From Branchiostoma floridae (taxonomy: Eukaryota > Chordata > Leptocardii > Amphioxiformes > Branchiostomatidae), in contig NC_049980.1 of NCBI RefSeq assembly GCF_000003815.2, positions 26,384,508-26,448,507 of the forward strand: a stretch of 64,000 nucleotides of DNA, written 5' to 3'. This document shows positions 12,801 through 54,100 of this stretch, piece by piece. Numbering within the stretch: the first letter of the stretch is position 1; each line of letters starts with the position of its first letter. A program made the position numbers and the translations under genes. The notes below the pieces were generated by a model. That model saw only the letters and a program-made list of their open reading frames with translations. It was not told the DNA's origin and made no database searches.

Positions 12801-15800
12801 GAGTAACCTCACAAATTCCGCCACGGCAAGACTATCTCAAAAACTGAGGTATCAGGGTAAATCGTTACGATGTACAAATTACTGCACTGTAAATGAAAGC
12901 TGGCCTTTAAAGCAATCCCTTCTATCCGGATATTCGCGATGATATTCTAATGGTGATCCACCATTCGCATTCCTCTTACAACATGCATTCCATCGAGCAT
13001 TCCAAGCTGTTTAATTTTATCATAACATAATTTAAATTCCACTTGCGAGTTCGCCCGTGCAGGCTGGGATTTATCAACGTGGGGCCGTTGATCACATAAG
13101 ACAATAAGTGACTAATAACCGTTAGTATCTTCATAACAAATCCAAGCACTGCTTTGAACAGTCAAAACTACGAGACCATTATTCCAATAACCATGCTGAA
13201 GAGCCCAAAATGGTAAGTAGACTATTGAGAAACACTTGAAACGTTAGAATGCAGGTTCTAGGTATTTGAGAGCAAGTTTAATGTGTTCGGATGCAGATTT
13301 GGCAGCAAGCAGGCTGATGTTTCAAGTGTTCTGCTGCAGCATTGACGGTGTGGCAGTGAGCAGATAAGAAAGTTTTAAGTGTTCAGCTGAAGGTTTTACC
13401 TGTCCGGCTGCTGGATCAAATTTCTGTGCTGCAGATTTGGCAGTAATGATGTGATGTTAAAAGTTTTTTGGCTGCAGGCTTTAAACCCATGAAAATCTTA
13501 CCCAGGGTAATAGTAATAAGCATTCTATAGTATTACTGGTGTTAGTCTGCTTTAATTACGTTTGGCGGCAAGGAAACCAATGAGAAACGTTTAAAGTGTT
13601 CGGCTGCAGGTTTGGCCATAAGAAAACTATGAAAACCGTGAAGTTTTCGGCTGCAGATTCAAAGTGTTTGGCTGGGCGACAAGTCTATATACATAAATTT
13701 CTGCTGCAGATTTGGTGGTGAGCAGACTGACTGCAGGTTTGGCCGGCAGCCAGCTTGTTCTGTTGACGCTGTGTGGGGCACACTGACTCCGGGCGGTTCG
13801 GCTGCCGGCACTGTAATTGAGTTAATTTAGAATCAGATACAAATTTTACTTCGCCAAGTTTAATCACGATCTGCAGGCGGCCCAGTGGATTTGTTAACCG
13901 TATCTGGAACAAAATCATGGCAAACAAAACAAGTTAAGACAACACAGGCGGCTGCTCTTCCCCTTCATCTATAATTTGATCTGGAAATACAGGAAAAAGC
14001 TGCATGGTGGATTAAAGTACAGAATATCGACCTCGTGGAGATAACTAGTATTTTGAAGTAATCAGCATTAAAAGGGCCATGAAATAACTCTGTATAGTTA
14101 TGAGCTTACAACATCCTGAAGGTGCACAATTCGCCTATTTCCAACACATTTCAAATGGTATATCATGACCTCTCACGTTATTCATGTTTTTCACAAAAAA
14201 CACACACGCACACGCTTGGGCCCCCGAAAGATACCTTCTTGTCGAAGGTATCTATAAACGTTTCGCTGCCTGTCAGATGGCACCACGCCTGGTCTCATCC
14301 CAAAGCTCAGCACAAAATGTACACCCTTATCAGCCACTTCCTGCCACAATAAGCGGCTTGTGAGAATGGCCTGTAATTTGAGTGACGCACTTGTCCGAAG
14401 CCCCGCGCACGAGGAATCTGCAAATGGTTCCTTTATGGTGACATTTGTCTGTATAGCGGGGCACAGTGGCTATTACACTAGTAGTGTATATTGTCAGTAA
14501 AACAGAAGTAAAATAATGTTGATACTCTTTTTTTCTTTCTTCATTCTTAAATCAACTAGTGCATTTGTCAAAATGTTGATACTTACGTTCATATTGAACT
14601 ATGTGGTAAGTGAGTATGTATAAGGCAAGCGTGATTCAGTTGATTTTTTCTATGCTATGTGAACTGGACAAAGATGGGTTACAGTGAGAATTTTGAACAA
14701 AATCCTCACTGCAACCCAACTTAACCAATGAAGAGGACTTTAAGTTAAACTGCATTCAGCTTATAAAAATAATTGGTGTTTTTGCATCTGGTGCACGATC
14801 AAATTGTCATGATATTAAGCATTGTCTAGATGAGTCAGGTTTGAGTGGTGCTCAGGCGTCCGTGTTGATTAATTTTGAAGCCGGATTTACAGGCTAGCAA
14901 TCATTAGGGGATTCAGGACACCTTGCAGTTTATGTAGTTGACTTCGCGTTTGAATAGAGCCACATCTTGAGTATGTTAGGCACATCATTAAACCGGTTTG
15001 GCTTTAGTGTAGATCCCGGAGGGATACTTTGTAAGTGGCAGCATGCCCAACCGGACACAATACAACACAATACGGTACAAAGTGATGAAATTCAATTCAA
15101 TTCAATTCAATTCACTGCAATATATGCGACAATAAAATCTTCATGCTTGTTACACAGACCACCACAAGACCAGACCAGATAATGATTGAAATGATGGTGC
15201 ACTGCTATTTTTGTCGCTAAAACTTGCTCACTATAGCTATCTAATCTAGTCGGAGACACGATGTTTGCTTCTCCCTTACAGGACTGGATTGACTACCGTC
15301 TCGTCTGGAATCCCGAGGACTACGACAACATCGAGATTATCCGGGTTCCATCCGAGATCACGTGGAAACCAGACCTGGTTCTCTTTAACAAGTAAGTAGG
15401 GCCACTAATATGTGAGTCCCCTTAAATCAGGGTTCCCTCACATCCAGGTTTCCTTGGGATTCATTACATCCGGGTACATGTACATCCGGGTTCCCTCACA
15501 TCCGGGTTATCCCCGAGATATCGTATGTCACATGGAACGCTGATCTGGTTCTATGTGACCGAGATATCACATGGAACCCCGATCTGGTGCTATTTGGTAA
15601 GTAAGGCTTAGGTCCCATTTCCGGGGCCCGGCCGCGATGTTTATGGAAACGAAAAATGAAACTGTTTCCCAGGGAATATACACAAAGTATGCTCCTGGCT
15701 ATTTTTTTTTAAGTTCTGTGTGTTTTGTTGCCTTTCATGTCATGTTTCTCATTTTCGAAAACTACCCGGTCGGGCCCGAGCTGGGAATTGGGGCCTAAGC

Positions 15801-18800
15801 CTTAGCAGTGCGAGTCAATGAAATTTTCAAGGAATCGCTAAGTTTTTCCGAGAAAGCAACAACAAGAATTGCCAAATGAATGCACCAACGTTTTGTGATC
15901 TACCTGTTGCATACAACGTCGAATTCATTGTTGTTTTTAATTTCTGCCGGCAGTGCGGATGGACAGTACGACGTTCAGCTGAAAACCAAGGCTCTCATCG
16001 CTAACACAGGCCAAGTGTATTGGCTGCCCCCTGCCATCTACCAGAGTGCATGCTCCATCGAGGTGCGTTACTTCCCGTTCGACAGGCAGAACTGCACCAT
16101 GAAGTTTGGGTCCTGGACATACGACTCCTCCGAGGTCAACATCGAGCTCATAGACCACGAGGTGGTCATGGACGACTTCAAACAGAACGGCGAGTGGGAC
16201 ATCCTGCGGTCCCCTAACAGGAAGGTGGTCAGCGGCTCCGAGATGTTTGTTATGTTCGACTTCATCATCCAAAGGAAACCCCTGTTCTACACCATCAACC
16301 TGATCATCCCGTGTATTCTCATCACGTCCCTGTCGGTGCTGGTGTTCTACCTGCCGTCCGACTGTGGGGAGAAGATCACACTCAGCATCTCCGTGCTGCT
16401 GGCCCTGACTGTGTTCCTGCTGCTGATCGCCGACATCATCCCGCCGACTTCTCTGGACATCCCGCTCATCGGTAAATATCTCATGTTCACCATGATCTTC
16501 GTGACTTTCACCATCGTCACCACAGTGTACATACTAAACGTGCACCACCGGTCAGCCAGCACCCACACCATGCCGCCCTGGGTAAGAACACTCTTCTTGG
16601 ACAAACTGCCCAAACTCTTGTTCATGAAGCGGCTGGACCAGATGAATGATGAGGACGGGGATTCCGATAAAGGCTGTAAACACCTGAAGGCGTTCGGGCG
16701 CGACCCTGTGGACGTGGTGCACATGAAGCAAAGGAATGCCATGTTGTACGAGACACAGTGCCGGAAGTACGCTCTCAAGGTCTCGGACGTTTCCGGGAGT
16801 CAGACTCTGTCGGAGAACATTTCCCTCCAGCTGTCTCCGGAAATGAGGAGAGCGGTCAGCAACGTCAAGTTTATCGCGGAATACTTCAAGATGCAGGACG
16901 CCAATGACGCGGTGAGTCTAGTTTTGTTTTCAATCAGATCATCTTTCTCACACACAGCCTTAGCAGTGGTCCCTAGAAATAAGGACACAAGCTCTGTACA
17001 CTTAAGAAATTATCGATATCCATATTCAAATGTCTAAGAGAGGCAGCCTTGCTATGAAATCTATTCCAATGTCCTCAGAAGTGGTCTCTCGATTGTTCTC
17101 GCGCGCGCTCAGACATTGTCTTAGTTCTTTCAGTGCTGTATGTTTTATACTTATTCAAAATCATTTAGATATATACCGTGGTTGAAGATCTCACACTTGT
17201 CGGCAAGGTATATCACGGAAACTCAATGCTGACTGATGTTCTTATGATTTTACCTTCACTCGTTAACAAGTGACGTTGATCCCAAAAGTTTCGTAAACCA
17301 CACCCCAACTTTTATATAATGTCACAAGCTTGACTTGTTTGTTGTGTAATATGAAATAATGCAGATAAATGCTGCAGCTGACAAGACGAAGAGGAGTGAA
17401 CGCCCCTGTGAAAAGATTAGACCAATCAGAGCGCGTTTTGCGGGGATGTAGTCTTGCGAGAAAAGTCATCCCTTCAGCCGAGATGGATTTACCGCCGCCT
17501 GTCAGGAAGATACGCCAGAAAACCCGGCGTAATTCCGCCCGATCATTCCTCCAGCAGCCGCCGAGCGACCTTCCAAATGCCAACAGCCTCGGTTCAGGGA
17601 GCAGCTCCCAGCTGCAATCGCGGCGGGGTCAGAGCGACGCGCGCACGCCGAGGTTGTGCTTAATTTGGATGTGAGGTGGAACTTCCCAGGGGACCTCCGT
17701 GGGCGGAATATCAATCAGGGACCAAAAACACTGTAATAGTCGAAACGGGGATCTAGACAGGGGACAGTTAGATTTTTTTCATGAATAGCTCGACATATTC
17801 GGTTAGACATCTAGGCCATCGGATTTCCATTGAATGTGTCTGGGATGTAACTGCGGCAATGGTACATTACAACATACGGAACATTTGATTTAGCGATTTC
17901 TCTTTGGCTATGACTGGCCGGGTATATGTCGATTATTTTCCATCATATCATAACATGTAGTGAAAATGTAGGGTTTTCTTAAAATCCTGGGTGATGCCAG
18001 TGAGAGGGTATTTACCGGGTTCACGGCGGAACCCAATTCTGCCCGCCTCCTCCTCCGCCGCTATGCCTGTGCGACGGCAGGACCTCATTCTGTCAGGCCG
18101 CCGCCATGCTAACCATGTCTCCGCTGACGTGTGTCTGCCGAGATGAAGGAGCTTTGTGGCAATTAACCTATCAAAATGGATGATGAGAAGCTGCCTGAAA
18201 ACCATAATGCAGTTAACCAACCTTCACTGACACTGCTGCAGAGGAAACAAACGGTCATAGGACATGCTGCATATGCGAAAAGATGTGATTATTTTTGATT
18301 ATCCAAAAAAAATTTCATTTCGTGAGTGTCGATCGAATCAAACGCAGTTTGTGTGTAATTCGTCATATATAAACATGTCATTGTCACTCTGACGGACGGT
18401 TCTCCGGCGGCTGCTGCAGACAAGCGTGCGTCAGACGCTCAGGGCGAAGCGGACCGTGAAATGCCGCAATCTTGCTTATCGCGACACTCCGACAGCTTCC
18501 CAAAGTCATGGTTCTCAGACTTGGTGTTGAACGGACTGGCTACAGGAGGGGATCGTACGTTGTGCTGCTATTTCCCGCACAGGGGGCAGTTAAAGATACG
18601 AATTAAACATAGAACAAAATAATGCTGACAACAGAATAGGTAAAACGTGAAACGTGCCATTGGCTCTGTAGTGATATGACAGACAAACAACATAAGACAA
18701 TGGATTTTTGACTCGTATTGTGGATTTTACGTCTACTTTCCCTTTCTGTTGTGTTGTCTTTCAGCATCATTTTAGCTTATCGATGTAGTGCTTTCCCTTG

Positions 18801-21407: not shown

Positions 21408-21649
21408 AGTTGTAGATACTGCGGGGTTGTCTGTTGTCACATGTCAAGTCAAAGGCGTGCGTTTGGTTGAAGAATACTTTTGAAATAAAAGCTATGATTT
21501 TGAAATCGCGCTCTTGACTGTCCCGTCTGACCATTCTGTTTCTTATCTATAGATTCAGTAATAGTAATATTGTGTTGTACACGGTACCTATGTGTTGCCT
21601 GCCGGGCGAGCTACGTGAGCCTGTGTGCCGTTCTTGTTAGTGTCGGTTG

Positions 21650-21820
21650 GGATGTTTTAAGAAACGAAAAATTGAAATGCATACCTAGAAATATACACAA
21701 GTAATGAACACGAATCTTATTTTTACATTTTGTGTATATTTTGATGTCCTTTATGTTATTCTTTTCGCTCCCGAAAGCTGCCCGGCCGGGCCCCGGTTTG
21801 GAAATGTGACCTAAGCCTAA
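21650..21820. mobile_element. MITE family 1, copy 2 (5' truncated)
   Basis: The right end CCCGGCCGGGCCCCGG followed by TTTGGAAATGTGACCTAAGCC matches family 1. The interior (GATGTTTTAAGAAACGAAAAA, then ATATACACAA) matches copy 1. The expected left terminal repeat is missing. Confidence 0.7.
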
Positions 21821-21837
21821 AGCTGGAGTCACCAAAA

Positions 21838-21992
21838 TGGGGTAGGCCCGACTGTTTGCGGAAACAAAAATAGAAATATATACAAATTATTCCCATCACC
21901 ATTTTCACGTTCTGTGTGTTTTTCTTGTCTTTTGTATCTTACCTGTCGTTCCCGAAAGCTGCCCGGTCGGGCCCCGGTTTGGAAATGTGACC
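21838..21992. mobile_element. MITE family 1, copy 3 (5' truncated)
   Basis: The interior (TTTGCGGAAACAAAAAT) and right end (CCCGGTCGGGCCCCGG, then TTTGGAAATGTGACC) match copy 2, which lies directly upstream in the same orientation. The left end is truncated. Confidence 0.7.
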
Positions 21993-22593: not shown

Positions 22594-25500
22594 ATGGCCT
22601 CCCTCCGCTGGTACGGGCTGATTCTGCTGGCAGCGACTCTGCAAGGTGAGGCAGTTTCCCCTGTTCGTCATGAATAACAGAAACAGGCTCGGCTTTGAGA
22701 AATAACGAGACCAAAGTGTTCTCCATAAAATTCTAAATAACAGCGTGCGTCATTGGGTTATTTTTAGCTGGCCTTCCATATCAACATCGTGGCTGAGTTG
22801 ACTGATGTCAACAGTAATAACCCCCCTCCCCGAGCTCGCAATGATGCAACCCCCCTGCCGTTGCCATTTAGCTGTCTGTTCATAGATTGAGTTTTATTAT
22901 CTACCTGCTCCAGCCATCAGGTCCTTTTGGTTTGGAAGGAATGTCTGTTATAAAGCCCCGGTACCACTCACCCTCAATGTTGATATGTAATGAATGGAGG
23001 GGTACCTAACGAGATAAACGATAGCACGCAAGTTTGCTCCTCCAGGTTTAGAACAAATATTCTATGCCCATAAATAGTGATCTGCAAACAGATGTGGGAT
23101 CCTGCTTGTGTTCTGGCGTTTTCAGCATATTTTACGTTTTTCCAGAGGTTGTCGTTTTATCCCTTCGTCTTCATCTCCCCGAAAGACATACAAAAGAACG
23201 CCCAAATTTACCAGGCCTGATATCTGCTTGGAGTAGCCTGACGAGTCAGATCAGGTGACACGGACAGGAGCCCTTGACCCTCCCGTCAGATCAGATAATA
23301 TGATTGATTACAAGGTTCGTCTGGGATCTTATTCTGAGGAAAGAAATAAGATAGAATAAGTGACAAGACCCCTGTACAATCCGGGGCCCGGCCGGGCAGC
23401 TTGCGAGAGCGAAAAAGTATGATTTAAGAGGCACCAAACTACACAAGACGTCGACTAAATAGTCGTGGGCACTAATATTTGTATCATATCTTTACGTATA
23501 CATTTCTGTTTTTAGTTTTCACAAGCAGCCCGGCCGGGCCCCGGTTTGGAAATGCGACGTTGGCCCAAGGCGGTGCTTCCATATCCCATTGCCGAATCTA
23601 ATAAAACAGTCCGATTTGTTCCTCAAGTTTGTTTGTTTAGTCGTTATGAGTCAATTTTAGACCATGTTGTTTTCATTTTCTTGTTCTTGTACTGATGAAG
23701 GTGACGAGCTTCATTTTCTTCCTTCTTGCTTGGCCGAAACAATTTTAAAGTTTGTGATTATCAGTAAGCTGACGCCATTCGTTTAACATAAAAGTGCTAA
23801 ATATAAGTGCACAAATTGAAACAAACGACCATGAGGAACCAACATCAAACATTCCCCGAATTGGTGTGAAAGAGGGACCATGTTTGCTAACTAAAAAACA
23901 ACAAAAACGTCTAATTGGTTTGGTCTGTACACAAATAGGGTCCATGCCCGTAGCCAGGGGGGGTTCGGGGGGTTCGAAAGAACCCCCCCACACGCTCAAA
24001 GGTCCACTTTTTCACACTCAAAGGTCCACTTTTTCACACTCAAAGGTCCACTTTTCCATGTCCAAGATTTTTTTCAAAGGCATAACTGATTTGCATTTTT
24101 CACCGATAGACACTTCATTCATATCTTAGTGATTCTATCAGCAAAATTTGCCCCAGAAAGTGCAGGAAATGGCTTTTCAGAGGGTCCAGATTTCAAAATT
24201 TCCCCGGACCTCCATTGCGATACCTCGTGCCTTTGGTCGCTTCAAAGACTTGGCAAAAGCCTTGTGTATTTTAATAGAAATTCCATTACAGGAAACTTAG
24301 CTAGTAAATTTTTCCCGTCAAAATGCAGGAAATGGCGTTTTAGAGGATCAAGATTTCAATTTTTTCCGGGGGAGCATGCCCCCGGACCCCCCTAGGCAAC
24401 TCACGCCTTAACTTCTACCTACTTCTTTTATACATAAAACGTGCTAAATCAAAATGAAAGTTCTGATTTGAGGACCCCCCCCCCCATGAGCGGTTAGGGA
24501 AATAACCCACCCACGCAGGGAGCTCCGACGAAGTGACACCAGAAACCCAAGATAAAGGGGAGTGGGACCAGATATTGTAATCCCGAATAGAACGGCCAAT
24601 AAACATCAAATCAAGAAAATGTATCTGTCAACTTAATGGCTTTCTATCATAGCATTATTTAATGTTTTCAGACTTGACATTGTGTCAATTTGTCAGCCAC
24701 GCTCACACTGTTCAAGGTCACGCTGCAAACGTGACAATTTTGACTTGGAGTTCCACGACTCCATCACTTACGTATGAAATTCCAGTTTTTTACCACCATG
24801 TAACTATAGCATTTTGTCATTAATCATGCAAATTAGGAACCCATTTGCATTATTGATTCTATTCTTTTTTTTTTCTCAATAACAAATGGCACATAAACCA
24901 ATAGTACTATCATGGAACGTAGAAATGCTTAAGATTTCCACATTAATTCAAACTAGATTCTGCATTTGCATAACTACCATCTGATTGTGCAGTCAGTGTT
25001 AATGTACAGCGAGTGTTAGTGTACAGCGATACACTCACAGGTGTGACAGTTTGTGAGAGTGTATAACCTTCACAGTTGTCTAGTAACAAGTGTTTCCCTG
25101 ACAGTCTACAGCTTATCTTTGTGTAGTTAACGTGCAGTTTTTCCCCTGACAGTTTGCCTCTGTTCGGACTCGGAGCACCGCCTCATCAATCACCTGTTCG
25201 ACTCAGGGTACAACAAAGTCATCCGGCCTGTGCAGAGCCGGGGCGAGGTCGTCAATGTCAACCTTCAGATCGTCTTCTCGCAACTCATAGCCGTAGTAAG
25301 TACCGCTATCGTCTTCTCACAACTCATAGCCGTAGTAAGTACCGCTATCGTCTTCTCACAACTCATAGCCGTAGTATGTACCGCTATCGTCTTCTCGCAA
25401 CTCATAGCCGTAGTAAGTACCGCTATCGTCTTCTCGCAACTCATAGCCTTAGTAGGTTCCTCTGTCGTATTCTCGCAGCTCTCAGTCGTTGGGCCTAGGT

Positions 25501-28500
25501 CACATTTCCAAAGCGGGACCCGGCCGGGCAGCTATCGGGAGCAAAAAGAATCATGATATAAAAGACGCCTAAGTACATAAAATGTCAACATAATATTCAT
25601 GGGTATGATCTCTGTATATATTTCTAGGTAAACATTTCAATTTTTCACTTCTTAGAACATCCCGACCGGGCCCCGGTTTGGAAATGTGACCTAAGCCTAA
25701 GTCGTAGTATAGTAAGTACCGTTGTCTAATCTCCAGTCCTGCTGACTCCCTTTATCTGGCTACACTCCTTGGCCAGCTTTAATACTGTCTGATATGCCAC
25801 TGGTAAATGTGCCTGGAGATTAGACGAATCAGCCGTGGCTGGGACAGGACTTGGCTAACTATAGACTCAGCTGGTTAGAAGTCATTGGCATGTTTGTTTG
25901 ATTTGTTTGTCATTTGTGTGTTTTAGATGATTGACGTGTGTGATTGACGTCTGACGTCTGTTTTTATAAATAAATAAATAAACAGGAAGAGAGGGAACAG
26001 ATGATGAAGACGAACCTGTGGCTCGGCCAGGACTGGTACGACTACAGACTCAGCTGGAACCCCGAGGACTTCGACAACATCGACATGGTGCGGGTGTCGT
26101 CTGAGGACATCTGGAGACCGGACGTCGTGCTGTTCAACAAGTAAGGGTCCGGCTGACACTGTACCTGTACTATTCAGTTGGTCCAGCCACACTGTTTCAC
26201 AAGTACGGGTCCAGCTGACATCGCGGACCTGTATTCTGTCGGTAAAACTGGCACAACAAGTAAGAGGTTGGATCAGAACATCCATACCAGAGCCATATTA
26301 TTATCTAGACGGACTGAAATATCAGTATGGTTCAGTCTTTACAGTAGCTACACGGACTGAAACACCGACAAGTTTCAGTCTCTACAGTAATATTTACTCG
26401 GACTAAAACACCAGTGGGGTACAGTATCTAGAGTATAGTACCTACACGGACTGAAACACCATTAGACATAAAACACCGTTCAGTCTCTACAGTAGTACGC
26501 AAAAACAACAACATTTACTTAAGCTACTGTAGAGGCTGGACTGGTAGGGTCAAAAGCAAGTCACGGCGTTTAAGTGAAGTGTACTGATGAAACATTGTAT
26601 ATTACTATTTCCTTATTCTTCAGTGCTGATGGGAACTACGACATCCAGCTGATGACCAAGGCGTGGGTCCAGAGTGACGGGCACGTGCACTGGGCGCCCC
26701 CTGTAGTTTACGCCAGTGCCTGTTTTATCGTGGTGAAGTACTTCCCCTTCGACAGGCAGAACTGCACCATGAAGTTCGGGTCCTGGACGTACGACGCAGA
26801 CGAGCTGGACCTCACGCTCCTGGACGGGGAGGCGCAGATGCACAGGTAGCGCTGAGGGCAACGTTGCTACTATCATATTGGAACTTTTGCTTTATGGATA
26901 CGTATGCATACGTATATACGCACTAAAATAGTTTGTCATACATGCGTAATTGATGAATTTGAAACAAAAATAGATAAGACTGAAGTCTATCATATTCACT
27001 AAACATTTACGACTTTAGCTGTTATTTCTTTTATCCAGTTATTTATACACAAAATTCACCAATTCATTAATCTTTTTCTAGATACAAGCAGAATGGCGAG
27101 TGGGATATCCTCCGCTCCCCAAATCGAAAGTACTACGCAGACAAACGCGTTTACGTCAACTTCGACTTCATCATCAAGCGGAAACCCCTGTTCTACACCA
27201 TCAACCTGATCATCCCGTGCATTCTCATCACGTCCCTGTCGGTGCTGGTGTTCTACCTGCCAGCTGACGAGGGCGAGAAGGTGACGCTAGGCATCACGGT
27301 CCTGCTGGCGCTCATCGTGTTCCTGCTGCTGATCGCCGACATCATCCCGCCGACGTCCCTGGACGTGCCGCTCATCGGGAAGTACCTGCTCTTCACCATG
27401 ATCTTCGTCAGCGTGGCGATCGTGGCGACGGTGTACGTGCTGAACGTGCACCACAGAACTTCCAGCACGCACGACATGCCAGACTGGATCAAGGCCGTGT
27501 TTCTGGAGAAGCTGCCCAAACTGCTCCGCATGGAGCGTCCCGAGTCCGAGCCGCCAGAGCCACCGGCCAAGGAGTACAACACCTGGGATCATCCGCCGTA
27601 CTTCATGAAGAACGTCAACGGCAGGTAAGGACGCGCACTCGCATGCTCGCAGAAACATGTACATATAATACATACACACTTACCCAGTCGCGCACACAAA
27701 CATACACAATTGCAAACACACACGAATTCGCCTTACTTCATGAAGAAGGTCAACGGCATGTAATTATGTAAGGACACGCACCCACACGCTCGCACAAACA
27801 TATGATACAAGCTTTTAAAGCACACTCGCGCGCACATGCATACACGAACACACACACATGCGATCGGACCTACGTATCAAAGTTTGTAATAACACTGCAT
27901 TCCGTTACACAAGACACACCTTGGGGTCTATCAAAGCTGTGTATAACTGTCCCTGTTTCTGCAGGTCTGTGGAGACGAAGGGGCGGAACTTCGGACTGCG
28001 CGTGACCGACATGTCCGGCAACCCCTTCAAGGCAGACAGCCCGAGATCCGGCCGGTTCGGCCAGGCACCGCCCAGTCCCTCCGTCCTGCCCAAGCGGCTG
28101 TCGCCCGAGGCTAGGAAAGCGCTGAAAAACCTCAAGCTCATCTCCGAGTACTTCCGCAACCAGGACGAGGATGATGGGGTAAGTTCGTCACGTGGTCAAG
28201 AGTTAGGGCGCGGTCACATAGATCGTACGATCGTCGTACGATCACTAACTTCGGATATTTTGGAGGACAAAAAAATGTACGTCTCCTGCAAAGTTTAACT
28301 GTCTTGGTAGACAAAATGCTGTTTTGGATCCATGTCGGTGGTTGGTTCTGTCAAGGCTTCTTGAAAATCCTATGGCATCAAAATAGTACGACGATCGCAC
28401 GACCTATATAGCTATGTGATCGCGCCGTAACTTGATGTACTGTCGCCATATTCACATTAAAAAGAAGTGGGAAGGAGATCACAGGTGTGAATTTGAAAAA

Positions 28501-28995
28501 GTCTAGATCTAGGGGTTAGCAATTCTATCTGCGGATCACAAGGCCAACTGCAGGAGTCCCGGCTTACTCTAAACTTCACCATGTGTGATGCACTCAGGTT
28601 TAATGGTACGGGTTTGTACGGATCCCTGTCGTCTCCCGACATGATTGCAGTCCAGTCGGTCCGTTTTTAATGGGAGCTACGCTTTTAGGAGGTACCTACT
28701 GAGAGATAAGAACGTCCCTCTTTGCTCAAAAGGAAGGGTATACAATGTATGTTCTAACCAACGTTGAGGTATCAAGCTTACTACAACTATTACAACAAGG
28801 TTTATTGTCCTGTGCAATGGTAAACATAATACCTTCTGACGCATGCGTCGTTTGTCCTTCCTACAGGTGGCGGGAGACTGGCAATACGTTGCCATGGTGA
28901 TAGACCGGATCTGCCTGTGGCTGTTCGCCACCGTCTGCTTCCTGGGGACGCTGGGATTGTTCCTGCAGCCATTCGTGGGGTCAGACGAGGAGTAA
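22594..28995 (+). CDS. nAChR non-alpha subunit, gene B
   Basis: Predicted pentameric channel subunit. Exons: 22594-22645, 25153-25295, 25986-26140, 26624-26845, 27082-27624, 27965-28178, 28867-28995; 1458 nt, 485 residues, all GT-AG. Signal peptide [18 protein letters not shown]. The mature N-terminus has a Cys-Leu-Cys motif. The Cys-loop is C150-C164, with loop B W171. M2 is at 257-277 ([18 protein letters not shown]) with E256 at the cation-selectivity ring. The cysteine found before M2 in the other five genes is Glu here. Loop C (RKYYADKR) has no cysteine pair. Differences from the shared gene plan: exons 3 and 4 are fused (155 nt), and there are two extra introns, one before the YKQNGEW block and one in the M3-M4 loop. 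Two of its donors (25296 and 27625) are followed by tandem copies of the junction. M4 reads [13 protein letters not shown], as in gene A. Confidence 0.92.
23382..23569. mobile_element. MITE family 1, copy 4
   Basis: The inverted ends CCGGGGCCCGGCCGGGCAG and CAGCCCGGCCGGGCCCCGG face each other across about 150 bp. The outermost bases of the left terminus have diverged. No coding capacity. Confidence 0.8.
23945..24400. mobile_element. Interspersed element with G/C-rich ends and 23-bp tandem core
   Basis: The left end has GTAGCCAGGGGGGGTTCGG and the right end GCATGCCCCCGGACCCCCC. The middle has three copies of a unit containing CACTCAAAGGTCCACTTTTT (about 23993-24058) and a twice-repeated GCAGGAAATGGC(T/G)TTT(T/C)AGAGG block. 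This layout suggests a decayed non-autonomous transposon; the superfamily is not determined. Confidence 0.5.
25269..25491 (+). repeat. 39-bp tandem array of the exon 2 / intron 2 junction, gene B
   Basis: The first unit is the last 27 nt of exon 2 plus the first 12 nt of the intron. Units start at 25269, 25308, 25347, 25386 and 25425, with a degenerate sixth. Each repeats ATCGTCTTCTC(G/A)CAACTC followed by ATAGCCGTA and a donor-like hexamer. Donor-like GTs fall at 25296, 25335, 25374, 25413 and 25452 (GTAAGT, GTAAGT, GTATGT, GTAAGT, GTAGGT). Because 39 is divisible by three and no unit has an in-frame stop, the coding frame stays open through the whole array. Each unit adds [13 protein letters not shown]-like residues. 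Confidence 0.95.
25492..25699. mobile_element. MITE family 1, copy 5
   Basis: Left end GGCCTAGGTCACATTTCC plus ACCCGGCCGGGCAGC, and right end GACCGGGCCCCGG then TTTGGAAATGTGACCTAAG. This is the most complete inverted-repeat pair of the family here. It abuts the end of the junction array. Confidence 0.85.
26150..26520. repeat. Degenerate tandem repeat in gene B intron 3
   Basis: Units containing ACGGACTGAAACACC and CAGTCTCTACAGTA recur irregularly. The first part also repeats CAAGTA(A/C)GGGTCC(A/G)GCTGACA from around the exon end at 26140, a possible further weak junction duplication. Confidence 0.55.
27640..27870 (+). repeat. CA-rich segment with a copy of the gene B exon 5 end
   Basis: At about 27729 the sequence repeats the exon end CTTCATGAAGAACGTCAACG as CTTCATGAAGAAGGTCAACG, followed by a GTAAGG-like donor (27768) and the same ACGC-rich intron start. 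The offset from the real junction is about 135 bp. A TAA follows the copied CGGCATG, so it does not extend the frame. The surrounding DNA is rich in ACACA. Confidence 0.8.
28203..28432. mobile_element. MITE in gene B last intron
   Basis: The inverted ends AGGGCGCGGTCACATA and TATGTGATCGCGCCGT flank about 200 bp. Subterminal GATCGTACGATCGTCGTAC and GTACGACGATCG blocks also pair. Non-autonomous. Confidence 0.75.
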
Positions 28996-31045: not shown

Positions 31046-31417
31046 TTAGGCCACACCAATTTAATTTCTTGGTTCACGGATTCGCTCGCTCCTATTTTTT
31101 GGGAAAAAAAATAAAAATAAAAATTACCACTCAGCAAATTTTCACCATTAATGAAACCATTCACCAACTTTCTGGTGTAGCAAACATAAAAGCTGACACT
31201 ACTTTTGTAATTTTCAACGAACAGGTGCTGTTACTGTACAGTAATAGTGTTTTTGTACTTTTTTCAAGCTGAAAACTTTTTTTCTTTATGTTTGGGATTA
31301 GCCCTTACCTTTACCCGAACCATTTTACAATTTTTATTTTTATTTTTATTTCGCCCTCTCGCTCCATATTTTTTATGAAAAAATCCGTGAACCAAGAAAT
31401 TAAATTGGTGTGGCCTA
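31046..31417. mobile_element. MITE with perfect ~35-bp terminal inverted repeats
   Basis: TTAGGCCACACCAATTTAAT at the left is mirrored by ATTAAATTGGTGTGGCCTAA at the right. The repeats continue inward through TTCTTGGTTCACGGATT. About 370 bp, AT-rich, non-coding. It starts where the previous MITE ends. Confidence 0.9.
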
Positions 31418-31590
31418 ATAGTGTTTTTGTACTTTTTTCAAGCTGAAAACTTTTTTCTTTATGTTTGGGATTAGCCCTTACCTTTACCCGAACCATTTTA
31501 CAATTTTTATTTTTATTTTTATTTCGCCCTCTCGCTCCATATTTTTTATGAAAAAATCCGTGAACCAAGAAATTAAATTGGTGTGGCCTT
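31418..31590. repeat. Tandem duplication of the right half of the preceding MITE
   Basis: The segment from ATAGTGTTTTTGTACTTTTT to the right terminal repeat (about 31243-31417) is repeated head-to-tail with only one or two single-base length differences. The duplication must therefore be recent. Confidence 0.9.
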
Positions 31591-41400: not shown

Positions 41401-43666
41401 GAAAAAGAAGAAGTCATGAAAACTAACGTGTGGCTAGCCCAGGTAAGACATGTATGGTTTTGTAGACTAAACAGGAAGAAGGCATGAAAAGGATGAATTC
41501 CAGTGTACCATATCAGATGGCATATTATTCCGCTATTTTCTTCTGTTTTTCGTTTTTAACGGATTTGTTCATTGCAAGGCTATTTGACCGATGGATGTTG
41601 GAAATTATTTTGCAAGGAGATAGCTGTAAACACGTGTTTTTTTAAGACTTGAAGATTTTTGTGTCGCCACCGATATTCACTGAGTCGCCGGTATATGGAC
41701 TGTGCGTACAGTTTGATGATAATTAAATCTGCCCCTAGCGTGCGGTACCTATTGTATGTTGACAGCAAGGTACGCGTGGTGAGGGATCTGGTATGGTGTA
41801 ATAACATGGTCTGTTCTTACTCTCCCTGCTGCAGACGTGGACCGACTACAGACTGATGTGGAATAAGGAAGATTACGATCACGTCCAGGTCATCAGAGTT
41901 CCTTCAGAATCCGTCTGGAAGCCGGACATCGTGCTCTTTAACAAGTAAGTCACACTAAGTATGTTGGAATCTGGGAAATTGGTCAACAAAAACATTACAA
42001 TTTGCTTTTATTTAGTTCAAAGTTGACACAACCTACCAGAGGCTGAAAATCAAGATATTGCTAACAGACTGCATGGTACCAACTGAATTAGCATATTTGA
42101 CTGTTGCTCTTCTAGATCCAGGCCATTCAATATGGAACATGTTTAAACATGTTTCCGATGATTCTAATGAAAAGCGGTCCTTTCCGTTTCTTGCAGTAAG
42201 GACGGCCAGTATGACGTGGCGCTCTACACGAAGGTTCTCATCTATGACGATGGGAAGGTCGAGTGGCTCCCTCCCGCCATCTACCAGAGCTCCTGTGCGA
42301 TAGACGTGAGGCATTTCCCTTTTGACAAGCAAAACTGCACTATGAAGTTTGGCTCGTGGACGTATAACGGCGATGAGGTGGACATCGTGTTGGACTCCGA
42401 AGAAGCTGTCAGTGACGATTTTAAACTTAACGGAGAATGGGACATCATCAAGTCGCCCAGCAGGAGGACATTAGAGGGGGACGAAGTTTACGTTCACTAT
42501 GATTTTGTCATCAAGCGAAAGCCTCTGTTTTATATCATCAACTTGATAATTCCATGCATCCTCATCTCATCCCTGTCGGTGCTGGTGTTTTACCTGCCGT
42601 CCGACTGTGGGGAGAAGATCACACTCAGCATCTCCGTGCTGCTGGCCCTGACTGTGTTCCTGCTGCTGATCGCCGATATCATCCCCTCCACGTCCCTGGA
42701 CATCCCGCTGATTGGTCGGTACCTGATGTTCACCATGATCTTCGTCACGTTCACCACGGTGACGACCGTGTACATCCTAAACGTGCACCACCGCACGGCC
42801 AGCACGCACGACATGCCCACCTGGATCAGGATCGTCTTTATCAACGTCCTGCCCAGAATCCTGTGCATCAAGAGGCCTGCAGACGAGGAGGTGGTGGACG
42901 TGAAGGAGACCGTAATCAGGACATCGCTGTACCACAAGCCGAGAGAAGACGCGATGGAGATGAGAAAGCGGAACGGGATGATGACTGAAGGAGGGCGGGG
43001 CTTCGGGACCGTGCCGAGGAGCAGCTCGCCCGGCCCTGGGTTGCAGCAGACAGAAAGGCGCCACCTGGCGCCCGAGCTGGAGGATGCAGTCAAACATGTC
43101 AAGTACATAGCAGGCTTTTTCAAAAGTCAAGACGATGATTCAGAGGTTGGTACAGAGGCTTGGTTATTGCAGTTATCAGCAAGTGTAACAATCTATTTCT
43201 AGTTAGAAACGCGGGAGAAGGCCACCATAACGTTTGGTTTGCATGGTTCAATGCACTATATCATAGAGTGATTTAACACAGAGAAAATAAAACAAATAAA
43301 GGAAATAATTACACACAGCAGTTTGAAGAGAAAGTCGGAAAAAGACAATGATCGATCGCGCTCGGACAAATGAAGACGCGGGTCTTTTGCAATTCCTTGT
43401 CATTAGTCGACGGTTATATATATTTATAAGACTGCTGATCACTTAAGTAGAATAATGTTTCACTGGCGGATTCTTTGATACACACAAATACGTTGAATAC
43501 GTTTCCAAACCGCCTATATTGTTTTATTCCCGCACAGGTCAGCGACGAATGGCGTTTCGTCGCCATGGTGATCGACCGGATCTGCCTGTGGCTGTTTCTG
43601 CTCGTCTGCGTGGTGGGAACTCTGGGATTGTTCAAGGAGCCGCTCTTTGACGGGGATGACGTGTAA
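35451..43666 (+). CDS. nAChR non-alpha subunit, gene C
   Basis: Predicted pentameric channel subunit. Exons: 35451-35502, 40843-40988, 41398-41442, 41835-41944, 42197-43145, 43538-43666; 1431 nt, 476 residues. The start has a strong context (CCCACCATGG) and opens a signal peptide, [18 protein letters not shown]. The six-exon plan matches gene A exactly, including the separate 45-nt exon 3. The Cys-loop is C151-C165 (FPFDKQNC). M2 is 258-278 with the sequence [17 protein letters not shown], and E257 fits cation selectivity. Loop C ([11 protein letters not shown]) has no cysteine pair. M3 is followed by [12 protein letters not shown], and the cytoplasmic loop is rich in charged residues ([16 protein letters not shown]). 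The donor of the large exon is weak (GAG|GTTGGT), but its phase and the next exon ([14 protein letters not shown]) leave no doubt about the join. The M2 region is almost identical to gene A at the DNA level. Confidence 0.94.
36050..36870. repeat. Degenerate ~40-50-bp minisatellite
   Basis: At least fifteen units of the type GTGTTTGATGTAGACCTGTT with CTGGTACTGCCTGTCTGGGA, with frequent internal deletions. Open frames across this region consist of the same repeated peptide and are not genes. Confidence 0.85.
36380..36436. mobile_element. Small palindromic insertion in the minisatellite
   Basis: TAGCCTGGATTCCATACCCC and GGGGTTTGGTAACCAGGCTA are inverted copies around a short spacer. It interrupts an otherwise continuous repeat array, so it looks like an inserted element or its terminal remnant. 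Confidence 0.6.
38098..38460. repeat. ~38-bp tandem repeat
   Basis: The units CGGGTAACATTGTTGTACCG and TAAGTTTTCATGTTCGAA alternate. The three central copies (about 38215-38320) are identical and the flanking ones are diverged. Confidence 0.9.
38704..38732. repeat. Poly-C / CA tract
   Basis: A run of about 16 C followed by (CA)5. Confidence 0.9.
39007..39132. repeat. Direct duplication (~75 bp)
   Basis: The blocks GGTAAATTCCCGCA / GGTAAATTTCCGCA, CCAGCCAT and ACAAAGCCGGGGT occur twice in the same order. Confidence 0.75.
39307..39571. repeat. Direct duplication (~138 bp)
   Basis: Two adjacent copies both start TGTATGGATCAT and run through GTTGAGATTGACTG, CTTATCGTG, AGCTAGAT, CAGTAGCAAAATT and AATAAACAAAGAT, with a small deletion in the second. 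Confidence 0.85.
40260..40545. repeat. Degenerate tandem repeat with a G tract
   Basis: The blocks CTGCTGAAGGAGAGACATCT / CTGCTGAAGAAGAGGCATCT and CAG(G/T)GAACTGCA recur. A G18-like run lies near 40366-40381. Confidence 0.5.
41466..41497 (+). repeat. Possible decayed copy of gene C exon 3
   Basis: ACAGGAAGAAGGCATGAAAA resembles the start of exon 3 (GCAGAATGAAAAAGAAG, then AAGTCATGAAAACT) about 70 bp upstream. The match is short and could be chance. Confidence 0.3.
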
Positions 43667-45685: not shown

Positions 45686-48600
45686 ATGTTCAACAACATG
45701 CGTCATATGCATATCGCACAAGGGATTCTTTTATGTCTGCCTTTGCTTGTCCAGTTAGGTGAGTAAATGTTACATAAGATGTACAAGTGGCTGGCACATC
45801 AGTGGCTCTATATGAAAGTGTAAGACTAAGAGAAGTACTAGTATACTATAGGTGTCCTATTTATGAAGAATAGTACTACATTAATTATTAGAGCCAGTAT
45901 TTCAGTCTGCTTCGCCCTTGTGCTTCTGATTATGGAACCTTCACGGTTACCGCTTATTCAGTTGCAGCCCCGGTTGCAACAGTTTCTGGGTGGTAGGTCC
46001 ATAACCTGGTGCATTTTTCTGTTCTATTTGTAGAAGGTAAAACTATCGGAATGAGCCATCAGTGCGTACGGATGATCCGGGGCCGTCTACGCATGACATG
46101 CTGTATGATATAACTTGCAGTACTGCTCATAAATAGCCAACTGAGATCAGTGAAACCCAATTATCGTATCTGTGTAGAACTCTCGATGTGTTAGAGTTTT
46201 GTAGTGACGCCCTGAAATAAGGCAAGTCTGTTTGTATAACATTTCATTCCTGGATAACATGAAAGCAACTATATCTATTAGTTATCTTATGTTTGAGAAC
46301 CATATTATCTCTAATGTGAATCAACTTACGTAGACTTCCATGCTCAAATTATTCCAAAGCAACAAAATCCGGCTGACTAATGCCTCTAAAAGCGATAAAA
46401 CCGAGTGATACCATAGAGACAACCAAATACCTATGTTGTGCCTGTTTCCCTGACGTCATGACAGGCGCCCATGGAGCAGAATCGGAGGAGAGGCTAGTGC
46501 GCATGCTTTTCGATGAGCGGGGCTACAACCCGATGACCCGACCGTCCAGGTGGCTGGGTGACGTCACTAGAGTGAACTTCTCCTTGACAATATCCCAGCT
46601 GATCAGTCTGGTAAATCTAACTTACTGAGCACGCGTAACCGCAATCTGATTTATACTGAATGTACTAAAGGTAGACAAGTTTAGTACAGATATGCCATGC
46701 GGTAAACAGAAATGCATCCATACCTGTGATACAAGGCCTTAAGGGTGAACTGAAAAAATACATTTTGCCCACTTAAAAGAAAATCGGCACTGGCATACGT
46801 AAATTTACTGTAGTTCAATTACACTTGTTTACATATTCATGAATGCGACAGAAAAGGCTTCAGTAGAAACGTTCGTCTCTGAAAGGCTTTGAAAGTTACA
46901 GGTCACATTTATAACTTTTGCATGGTAGACTGAGAAGGAAGAGGCGATGAAGACGAACGTGTGGTTGGGACAGTCGTGGTTCGACCATCGGCTCGCGTGG
47001 GACAGCAAACTCTTCGGTGGGCAGAGCATCATCCGTGCTCCGGCTGAAGCTGTCTGGAAACCTGATATAGTCTTGTTCAACAAGTACGTCTGATTATGCT
47101 TTCTTATTTTATTGATCTTCGTGCACGTGTGTATGTTATTCTTTGTTTACAGTTAAGATGGTCGGGACAATTTTTGATACAGTAAAGATACCCAGTACGA
47201 CATTGCCTTGTTATTTTATGGCTGCAATAAAGATGTCCAGTACAAGATCACCTTGTTATTGTCTGGCTGCAGTAAAGATTCCCAGTACAAGATGGCCTTG
47301 TTATTTTCTGGTTGCAGTAAAGATGGCCAGTTCGAAGTCAGGTTTCTGTAAAGATGGGCAATTTATGTCCAGTACAATAATACGACCGGTGCAATGGCCT
47401 AGTGGGTAGAGTGTTCGCCTTGCATTCGGTAGGTCGTGAGTTCAAACCCCGGCCGAGTCATACCAAAGACTTTAAAAATGGTACATGCTTCTTTCTCTGC
47501 TTAGCACTCAGCATTCGGGAAAGAGTATGGAAGTTGAACACACACCACTACCAGTGGACTAGCCCCCTGCTGTAGTGGTTGCGTTGTGTGGCCCAAGGGC
47601 TACTGAAACGGAGATGGGCGCCGCCCTATGCGCCATCAGGCGCGGGACGGAACTTTGACTTTTTGACAATAATACTGCCTTGTTATTCCTTGCTGCAACA
47701 CTATTGATTCATCATTTTCTGGTTGCAGTAATTGAGTAAAGCATAATGTTGCCCTGTTCTTTTCTGGTTGCAGTAAAGATGGCCAGTACGATGTCGCCCT
47801 GTTCACTAAAGTCCTGATCAGCTCCAACGGGCAGGTGGACTGGCTCCCTCCCGCCATCTTCAAAAGTGGTTGCGCGATAGACGTGATCCAGTTCCCGTTC
47901 GACCGACAGAACTGCTCCATGAATTTCGGCTCGTGGACGTACGACTCCCAGGAAGTGGACGTGAGGCTGGTGGTTGACAGGGCAACCATGGACGACTTCA
48001 AGCCTAGCGGAGAGTGGGACATCCTGGACTCCCCCGGGAGGCGCGTCGTGACGGGAAACCAGGTACGCGTGATCTTCGACTTCATCATCCAGCGGAAACC
48101 GCTGTTTTACATCATCAACTTGATCATCCCCTGCATCCTGACGTCCTCCCTGTCTATCCTGGTCTTCTACCTGCCGTCCGACTGTGGGGAGAAGATCGGC
48201 CTGAACATGGCCGTACTGCTGGCCATGACTGTGTTCCTGCTGCTGATTGCCGACATTATCCCATCCACCTCACTGGCAGTGCCACTCATCGGCAAATATC
48301 TCATTTTCACCATGATCTTTGTGACCATGACTACAGTGGCAACCACCATGGTGTTAAACGTGCACCATCGCACGGCCAGTACGCACGAGATGCCAGGGTG
48401 GATCCGGTTCGTCTTCATTGACGTTCTTCCTGGGATACTCAGAATGGAGAAGGAAGAGGAAGAAGCTACGCCGTCGGAGAAGCTTCAGAATGGGGCCCCT
48501 TATTTCTCCTCGGACCAAGTTATCGACTCGGCTGGGTCTGATGCCCCGAGGGAAGACCGCGGGTCATCCCGTAGACTGGGACCGGAGATCGGCAAGGCTG

Positions 48601-51102: not shown

Positions 51103-54100
51103 ATGGGGACCAGCGATGCTGTGGCGGTGTTCCTGCTATGGACGGTAACCTGTAGACTAGCCGGTAAGGTACAGAATTACGCGTACTTGCATGACACTAA
51201 CTTGTGTCCTTGGGATTCATAAATGTCGAAAGTGTACTAAGTCTTGATCACAGTAGTCTACTGACGAAAAAGTGGGACTAACATGAACACCAGATACGGA
51301 GTTTTCTTCTTTTTGAGAAATGTATTTAAAATACAATATATACGCAAGAATCTAGCGACAGTGTTGGCACGTGATGTGTGCCTAAATCTGTTAAGAATTT
51401 GACAAAAAGGTACACAATTGGGCATTTCCATATGATGAGGCGAAGTTTAGTAGCTCTGTCAGTAAAACGTCCAACTGTTGGTCACTGTGTGACATGCAGG
51501 CTCTGACAGGCGACCAGTTTGACCACTGAACGTGTTGGCCGCCGCATATTCCGGCTATATATAGAGCCAGTAACGTTCTCGGGTTAACCTGGGGTACAAA
51601 GGGACTTATTCAATTTGCACAGCTATTGGCGCCCATCCAAAGGTGACGGGAAGTATTCCTGTCAGTGTTTCTCATGTTCACGGTATGGTACTGGGACCAT
51701 GTCCGGGAGAAAAGGAGCCGTGAGCGAAACAGGGGTTACATTCAACACGAAGCTAAAGTCACACGCTATTCCAGCGCTATTAGTATCACATTTTGCACAT
51801 ACGTATAAACAGCAGCACATACCGCCCTGGTATTCAGTTCCAGACTCCCCAGGCACGTCACTTTCACATAGGGATATGTTTTATATGAAATACTTTAAAA
51901 ACGTATTGTACGTCTGGTCACATCGAAGTAAACATTTACGTCCATATTGGCTGCTTAACATATGGGTTTGCATTGCATACAAACACCTGTTGTTTGCATG
52001 TGAAATAATTTGATGCTGTCCGGCCGAATCTAGTTCTGTTTACTTTCACAGTCTTCGGCTTAAATAATGATTTAAAAAGTTTAACGTAACACATATCACT
52101 ATGCATATCCTGAAAGGTAGCAATGATGGTATTGAAGAAACAAATTTTACAAAGTATTATGAATACTTGATAATCGTTGTGAAGTGAAATAGCTTAAGAT
52201 AAATGCAAGTTACTGACCCTTCCTCAATATTTCCATATTCGTTCAGGTGTCTACGGAGCAACGTCAGAGGAGAATCTTGTGCGCATGATCTTTGAAGAGC
52301 GGGGATACAATCCCACAATCCGACCTGCGAAGTCCCCGGATGAAGTGATCACCGTCCATTTCTACCTGAGTATATCTCAGTTAATCAGCTTGGTGAGAAT
52401 CTCTACATGATTACCCTGAAATAAAAGTTAATCTTTCGGACTCCAGGAAGAATAGCGGTATCACTTGTTATCGCTAATGGAGATCCTAATAAAACAAAAA
52501 ATCAGCTTGGTATACACCTCTACGTGCTTGATTTAACACAGCAGTTATTAATTCTAGTGCGCCCTCTACATATTTATCTTTACACAACAGTTAATAATCT
52601 TAGTGTATACCTCTACATATCTACCTTTACACAACACTTAGATGGCATGATACGAACCTTTACATTATCGCCTTTACACATCAGTTAACCAGATTGGTGT
52701 AAACTCATAAATACATGCATTAACACTAACCATTACACATCACATAAAATCAGCCTGAGTAGTTCGCGTTGGTTCCCCGTTTGTGTCAACAGTTATAATA
52801 GGAAGTTGTCAAGTCACCGGGCACTACTGAACGGTCGCAGAGTAACATGTAGGAGTTAGACCTATAGATATGTGCATCATGCCATAATCTAATTATCTAA
52901 CGGTAGTTACATATATAATACAAATTCAAATTAATCTGGTTACTTCCAAGGTTTAACCATCTAACATAGTGGACACTGCGTATGCTATGGTCGCGTGAAG
53001 GAAAACACCCTCTTTGTTTCAGAACGAGAAGGAAGAGACGATGAAGACGAACGTGTGGCTCGGACAGAGCTGGTACGACCACCGTCTGGCGTGGAACAGT
53101 GCTGAGTACGATAACCTGACTGTCATCCGGGTCCCCGCGGAGGCCGTGTGGAATCCAAACATCGTTCTCTTCAACAAGTAAGATGATACATCGTGACATT
53201 ATGTAGTACAGTCAAACCTGTCTATAGCGGCCACTCAAGGGACCGGACAAATTTGGCCACTATAGACAGGTGGTCTCTGTATAGAGGTGGCAACTTGTAG
53301 ATAAAATACCCAAGGGACCGACAAAAATTGGCCACTATGGACAGGTGGCCCCTCTGTAGAGGTGGCCCCTAATACAGGTTTGACTGTACATGATACACAC
53401 ACGCTGTAGCAGCTCCGGTAAGCTTTATCGGGAGACGTTTTCCGTAAAGATTAGTATCTTTATTGAGCTGTAGAAAGAACGGTCAGTACGAAATTGCCCT
53501 CTACACGAAGATACTTACCAGATCTCATGAGAATATGTTATTTTCTGGTTGCAGCAAAGACGGGCAGTACGAAGTTGCCCTGTACACGAAGGTTCTTGTG
53601 TACGAGGACGGGAAGGTGGAGTGGCTCCCTCCCGCCATCTTCCAGAGTAACTGCGCCATCGACGTTCGGCAGTTCCCGTTCGACCGCCAGAACTGCAGCA
53701 TGAAGTTCGGCTCATGGACCTACAGTCCGGAGGAGCTGGACATTGTCTTGGATTACGATACTGCCACTACTGACGACTTCAAGGAGAGCGGCGAGTGGAA
53801 CATCCTGAAATCGCCCTGCAGGAAAGTCGCTAACGAGAAAGAAGTAAGCGTTTTCTTTGACTTTATCATCCAGCGGAAACCACTGTTTTACATCATCAAC
53901 CTGATCATCCCCTGTATCCTGACGTCCTCCCTGTCTATCCTGGTCTTCTACCTGCCGTCCGACTGTGGGGAGAAGATCGGCCTGAACATGGCCGTACTGC
54001 TGGCCATGACTGTGTTCCTGCTGCTGATCGCCGATATCATCCCCTCCACCTCACTGGACGTGCCACTTATCGGGAAATATCTGATTTTCACGATGACGTT

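What the first reader, a model, noticed from the sequence alone, without database searches (positions are those of the whole stretch)
25269..25491. Ladder of five in-frame splice donors in gene B that could add 13-residue units
The exon 2/intron 2 junction is repeated in 39-bp units, each carrying its own donor (GTAAGT three times, GTATGT, GTAGGT). 39 is divisible by three and no unit has a stop in the coding frame. Using donors 2 to 5 would insert 1 to 4 copies of [17 protein letters not shown] peptide in the extracellular domain, just before the TNLWL block. Copy-number change between alleles could also alter splicing. I know of no such ladder in a neurotransmitter receptor.
Basis: partly seen in the sequence, partly recalled or inferred. 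Interest (0 to 1): 0.8.

Follow-up and report, generated by a model that had tools for sequence, protein, structure and literature searches.

The report
Minisatellite repeats a receptor gene's splice-site
In a probable lancelet (amphioxus) acetylcholine-receptor gene, a short DNA repeat has copied the end of an exon together with its splice signal five times; this kind of repeat is already described in lancelets and is reported not to disturb splicing, so it is real but probably ordinary.

Summary
A 39-bp minisatellite at 25269-25490 (five full units and a decayed sixth) repeats the exon 2/intron 2 junction of a beta2-like nicotinic receptor gene, with in-frame donors at 25296, 25335, 25374, 25413 and 25452. 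A MITE-like element (25489-25700) cut the sixth unit; its donor survives at 25712. Donor 1 is the ancestral one: spliced there, the protein aligns without a gap to solved beta2 subunits, and the 10 other usable exon-2 homologues found in this genome (5 of them in the window) have their donor at the same residue and no array there. Tandem repeats over exon-intron junctions are a named amphioxus phenomenon ("mirages"), reported not to disturb splicing. Openness in frame is weak evidence: two other frames are open too. Local duplications are no commoner at junctions (7 of 32 probes) than inside introns (274 of 1184). A 13-residue insert would fall at the beta1-beta2 loop implicated in gating, so regular use is unlikely, but no RNA was available. 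Near-identical donors 39 nt apart, just beyond the reported U1 footprint, make this a good natural test of 5' splice-site choice. The species is inferred.

The parts
25159..25295 (+). Exon 2 of nAChR gene B (start approximate), ending ...FSQLIAV at donor 1
   Evidence: tblastn and splice-site inspection
25269..25490 (+). 39-bp minisatellite spanning the exon 2/intron 2 junction; 5 full units and a decayed sixth
   Evidence: TRF; unit listing
25296..25301 (+). Donor 1 GTAAGT, the ancestral exon-2 donor
   Evidence: GT right after the same residue in 10 of 10 other usable exon-2 loci, 5 of which are the other window genes
25335..25340 (+). Donor 2 GTAAGT (unit 2), +13 residues if used
25374..25379 (+). 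Donor 3 GTATGT (unit 3), weaker U1 pairing, +26 residues
25413..25418 (+). Donor 4 GTAAGT (unit 4), +39 residues
25452..25457 (+). Donor 5 GTAGGT (unit 5), +52 residues
25489..25700 (.). MITE-like element (inverted ends of about 40 bp, 87.5% alike; GTCG on both flanks) inserted into unit 6 of the array
   Evidence: related copies or parts at about 15.6-15.8, 21.6-22.0 and 23.4-23.6 kb
25701..25725 (+). Remnant of unit 6 beyond the element, with GTAAGTACCG at 25712
   Evidence: 12 of 12 nt match to the unit; 0 of 2000 mononucleotide shuffles as good
25836..25874 (+). Decayed copy of part of exon 3 inside intron 2
   Evidence: tblastn E 4.6e-4, 76.9% identity over 13 residues
25986..26140 (+). 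Exon 3 ([13 protein letters not shown]...), joined in phase 0 to donor 1

Best explanation
A minisatellite of the amphioxus 'mirage' kind: the last 27 nt of exon 2 plus the first 12 nt of intron 2 were duplicated in tandem and amplified by ordinary repeat turnover. The first, exonic unit is held by selection on the protein; the outer units drift, and a MITE-like element later landed in the sixth. Donor 1 at 25296 remains the functional 5' splice site, and the further donors are mostly decoys, used rarely if at all. Shown here: array, donors, frame, homology of donor 1, element in the array, absence from the other receptor exon-2 loci found. Inferred: origin by duplication and slippage, selection on unit 1, the amphioxus identity, and splicing at donor 1.
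For: Array at the junction. Splicing at donor 1 leaves one frame without a stop through the joined exon pieces and a gapless match at QLIAV|EEREQ to beta2 QLISV|HEREQ (5kxi_B, E 1.6e-128; 3 alignments seen, all beta2). In 10 of 10 other usable exon-2 loci found in the genome, 5 of them the other window genes, GT follows the same residue, and no array overlaps it and no junction copy was found (L013 dropped as misaligned; L008 holds some N). Exon-junction repeats called mirages, with normal splicing by the authors' account, in Adh3, troponin C and globins, and similar ones in PGBD5 (PMC3087553 and PMC3902484, passages and one section). A second case in this window: a 45-bp array of copies of the exon-5 acceptor of gene D (47180-47331), split from its exon by an insert flanked by ACAATAATAC. 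Outer units diverge most, as reported for a globin mirage.
Against: No RNA was available. Donors 1, 2 and 4 have the same computed U1 pairing (-7.0 kcal/mol), and the intron-proximal of two comparable donors is said to be favoured (PMC6002489 passage), which predicts donor 4 or 5. The globin paper says that mirage sites could act as cryptic splice sites and could explain intron gain, and a gene model of lancelet PGBD5 reads repeats as an exon, without RNA support. The species is inferred: a search for the GFP family, which I recall as abundant in amphioxus, gave 0 matches (its 14 control genomes also gave none). Junctions are not enriched for local copies over introns, so no junction-directed process is indicated. 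I did not see the Adh3 paper itself (not held).
Confidence: 0.8

Rival explanations
1. Donors 2-5 are used and make receptor subunits with 1-4 extra copies of [13 protein letters not shown].
For: All five donors in phase 0 with an open frame. Donors 2 and 4 pair with U1 as well as donor 1. Intron-proximal preference (PMC6002489 passage). The 39-nt spacing just exceeds the 35-nt U1 footprint quoted there.
Against: The insert repeats the end of strand beta1 at the start of the beta1-beta2 loop (placing recalled), which moved the M2-M3 linker in a simulation of human alpha7 (PMC1584325 passages). With 39 extra residues the Pfam LBD match breaks into two stretches and falls from 220 to 208.6 bits. 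Published mirages are said to splice normally. Openness is not special (3 of 6 frames).
Confidence: 0.12
2. The extra donors are used but not for protein: they waste transcripts or tune gene dose, with array length setting the level.
For: Many U1 sites close together; reported length differences between haplotypes at another mirage.
Against: In-frame units would not trigger decay by a stop; no RNA or allele data here; one copy in the assembly.
Confidence: 0.05
3. Assembly artefact: the real allele has fewer units.
Against: Units differ from each other and an element sits in unit 6, so the array itself looks real; the exact number could still be off.
Confidence: 0.03

Closest known systems
Amphioxus 'mirages' (Adh3, troponin C, globins BflGb6 and BflGb9; PGBD5 similar)
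   Same: Minisatellite-like tandem copies of an exon-intron junction with splice signals; outer units less alike (BflGb6); donor side known (BflGb9, PGBD5 exon 4)
   Different: Here a receptor gene, a 39-nt unit, five phase-0 donors with an open frame, and an element in the array. RNA not seen here.
Intron gain by tandem duplication of AG/GT sites (Rogers model, cited in PMC3087553; potato RdRp, PMC4974935, search listing only)
   Same: Tandem copies of splice sites
   Different: The intron here is old (same place in the paralogues seen); no new intron was made by this array.
TERT intron 6 VNTR6-1, 38-bp unit (PMC11830802, start of abstract in search listing only)
   Same: A VNTR in a gene whose splicing the title links to genetic variation; similar unit length
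   Different: That VNTR lies within an intron by the abstract; this one contains the junction itself.

Membership tests
Amphioxus mirage minisatellite | Tandem repeat spanning an exon-intron junction | tested here: met
Amphioxus mirage minisatellite | Units of minisatellite size (10-72 bp Adh3, 150-160 bp globins) | tested here: met
   39 bp; ranges from PMC3087553
Amphioxus mirage minisatellite | Inner units alike, edge units diverged | tested here: met
   0-2 differences from unit 1 in units 2-4, 4 in unit 5, 7 of 27 in the exon part of unit 6 (its last 2 nt belong to the element)
Amphioxus mirage minisatellite | Cephalochordate genome | tested here: inconclusive
Amphioxus mirage minisatellite | Length polymorphism between alleles | not testable with these tools
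   one place in the assembly
Amphioxus mirage minisatellite | Regular splicing despite extra sites | not testable with these tools
   no RNA held
Nicotinic receptor subunit, beta2-like | LBD and transmembrane domains, closest to beta2/beta4 | tested here: met
   Pfam PF02931 and PF02932; the five best PDB sequences are beta2 (3) and beta4 (2); M4 at 28876

The most novel reading that the evidence does not exclude
The array acts as a splice ladder: stepwise use of near-identical phase-0 donors, set by array length and U1 occupancy, makes receptor subunits with 13-residue increments at the beta1-beta2 gating loop, varying between animals and perhaps between cells if the array is somatically unstable as reported for Adh3.
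Probability: 0.08. Interest if true: 0.8.

Novelty: new member of a known kind. Interest (0 to 1): 0.3.

Why it matters
If only donor 1 is used, the locus shows a spliceosome picking one of several 5' splice sites with near-identical surroundings, against the intron-proximal rule. If others are used, it is a copy-number-controlled protein insert in a receptor. Either result comes from one RT-PCR. It also adds a donor-side and an acceptor-side (gene D) case in one receptor cluster to the mirage list.

Tried and rejected
Rejected: that junctions attract duplications. Junction probes with a local non-exonic copy within 1 kb were 7 of 32 (6 places, as the two C3 probes share one copy pair) against 274 of 1184 intron probes, 208 of 1323 probes outside my listed exons, 109 of 394 intron probes of genes B-F alone, and 7 of 377 exon-interior probes. 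Copies reaching 10 nt or more on both sides of the centre: 3 of 32, 148 of 1184, 122 of 1323, 57 of 394 and 0 of 377. One of the 32 junctions, the C4 acceptor, was a few nt off and was kept. The exon list lacks first and last exons, and neighbouring control probes overlap.

Rejected: that the gene-B-only intron 26846-27081 came from such an array; the repeat finder gave only short repeats (direct 10-12 nt, inverted 11-13 nt) in 26780-27140.

No help: donor accessibility, which gave no ranking I would trust (unpaired 9-mer probability 0.0075, 0.0039, 0.0043, 0.0036, 0.020 for donors 1-5; region median 0.020). Rfam (gathering thresholds) and ARAGORN (bacterial code) found nothing in the window. 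Searches on splice-site competition listed few papers on the point. PMC2206037 passages held nothing used. In one search the B5 donor was misplaced and unit 6 is no donor; both rows were dropped from the range quoted.

Not done: an Adh3 positive control in the same genome (family TIGR02818); that request did not complete. No structure job was run.

Full report
What is there. TRF finds a 39-bp array at 25269-25481 (5.5 copies, 93% matches). Each unit holds 27 nt of the end of exon 2 (IVFSQLIAV) and 12 nt of the start of intron 2 (GTAAGTACCGCT). Donors lie at 25296, 25335, 25374 (GTATGT), 25413 and 25452 (GTAGGT). A DNA search of the assembly finds the array at its own place only.

The gene. Exons found by tblastn join into one frame without a stop. 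Its Pfam domains are the neurotransmitter-gated channel LBD and membrane domains, and its best PDB matches are beta2 subunits (E 1.6e-128). An M4 segment lies at 28876. The window holds six tandem nAChR genes (exon 2 at about 7.4, 25.2, 40.9, 46.5, 52.3 and 60.0 kb), and at least three more follow within the next 30 kb. PMC6354393 (passages) reports an amphioxus clade of nine genes beside CHRNB2/4/5. That, the junction repeats and the genome size (513 Mb; the comparison with B. floridae is recalled) make me infer amphioxus. A GFP-family search gave 0 matches, which does not help that inference, though its control genomes gave none either.

Which donor is the old one. A genome search with the exon-2 peptide gave 12 loci (the tool calls its counts lower bounds). 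One is gene B; L013 was dropped as misaligned. The other 10 are the 5 other window genes, the 3 downstream genes and 2 elsewhere. In 10 of 10, GT follows the residue that matches the last one of the query (for L008 the script took a GT 3 nt earlier), no array overlaps it, and no junction copy was found (L008 holds some N). Spliced at donor 1, gene B aligns to beta2 without a gap at this point (3 alignments seen).

What happened to the array. A 212-bp element with inverted ends of about 40 bp (87.5% alike) lies at 25489-25700, with GTCG on both flanks. Beyond it, TAGTAAGTACCG matches the unit (12 of 12 nt; 0 of 2000 mononucleotide shuffles as good), with GTAAGT at 25712. The joined empty site aligns to consecutive units across the join, about 10 nt past it, with one gap. 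So the array had at least six donors. The coding frame stops at 25556, before the last one.

A sister case. In gene D of the same window a 45-bp array (47180-47331) consists of copies of the acceptor and start of exon 5 (real exon at 47774). It matches that junction at E 7.8e-14 and is separated from the exon by an insert flanked by ACAATAATAC at 47374 and 47666. Weaker copies of parts of junctions occur at 15563-15605, 26192-26220, 41458-41490 and 53474-53516 and, at protein level, at 25836-25874.

Controls. Local copies are as common in introns (274 of 1184 probes) as at junctions (7 of 32), less so in DNA outside the listed exons as a whole (208 of 1323), and rare inside exons (7 of 377). 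Counting only copies that reach 10 nt on both sides of the centre gives 148 of 1184, 3 of 32, 122 of 1323 and 0 of 377. The simplest reading is a region rich in minisatellites, some of which reach over exon edges. The coding frame is open through the array, but so are another forward and one reverse frame. For GTAAGT plus six random bases the chance of no stop is 0.89, and a unit length divisible by three occurs in 3 of 17 arrays (16, plus one overlooked). The in-frame ladder therefore needs no selection.

Would the extra donors be used? For: donors 1, 2 and 4 pair equally with U1 (-7.0 kcal/mol; donor 3 -3.3, donor 5 -5.3; 14 other donors of the cluster range from -2.8 to -11.0; pairing register not fixed). 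PMC6002489 (passages) says that the intron-proximal of two comparable donors is favoured, and quotes a U1 footprint of 23 + 12 nt, so that 39-nt spacing may let every unit bind. PMC3087553 allows that mirage sites could be cryptic splice sites. Against: the same paper and PMC3902484 state that splicing at mirages is regular; for PGBD5 itself the RNA support is only an N-terminal cDNA, and one gene model reads its repeats as an exon. The insert would fall at the start of the beta1-beta2 loop (placing recalled), whose contact with the M2-M3 linker started pore widening in a simulation of human alpha7 (PMC1584325 passages), and it splits the Pfam match in two. I judge donor 1 dominant, with about 0.12 for meaningful use of the others.

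Verdict. The feature is real and correctly described. It is a new member of a described kind, with an unusually clean in-frame donor ladder. What is open and directly testable is the choice among near-identical 5' splice sites.

Noticed in passing
47140-47815: Acceptor-side counterpart in gene D: 45-bp array of exon-5 acceptor copies, split by a roughly 290-bp insert with 10-bp flank repeats; by eye it looks tRNA-SINE-like, but ARAGORN and Rfam gave no match.
   Followed up: partly
26846-27081: Intron present only in gene B; the same place is uninterrupted in the other 8 genes of the cluster that I saw. No array remnant found.
   Followed up: partly
25986-26140, 46929-47083, 53023-53177: Genes B, D and E lack the intron that splits this exon in genes A, C and F; in the three downstream genes the second half was also found as a separate match.
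   Followed up: partly
L014-L016 (30 kb downstream of the window): Three more nAChR genes continue the tandem cluster, at least nine in all.
   Followed up: partly
31242-31589: A 173-bp unit repeated twice at 99% identity, perhaps a recent duplication.
   Followed up: no
21644-21992, 23382-23568, 15604-15801: Further copies or parts of the MITE-like element found in the array.
   Followed up: partly
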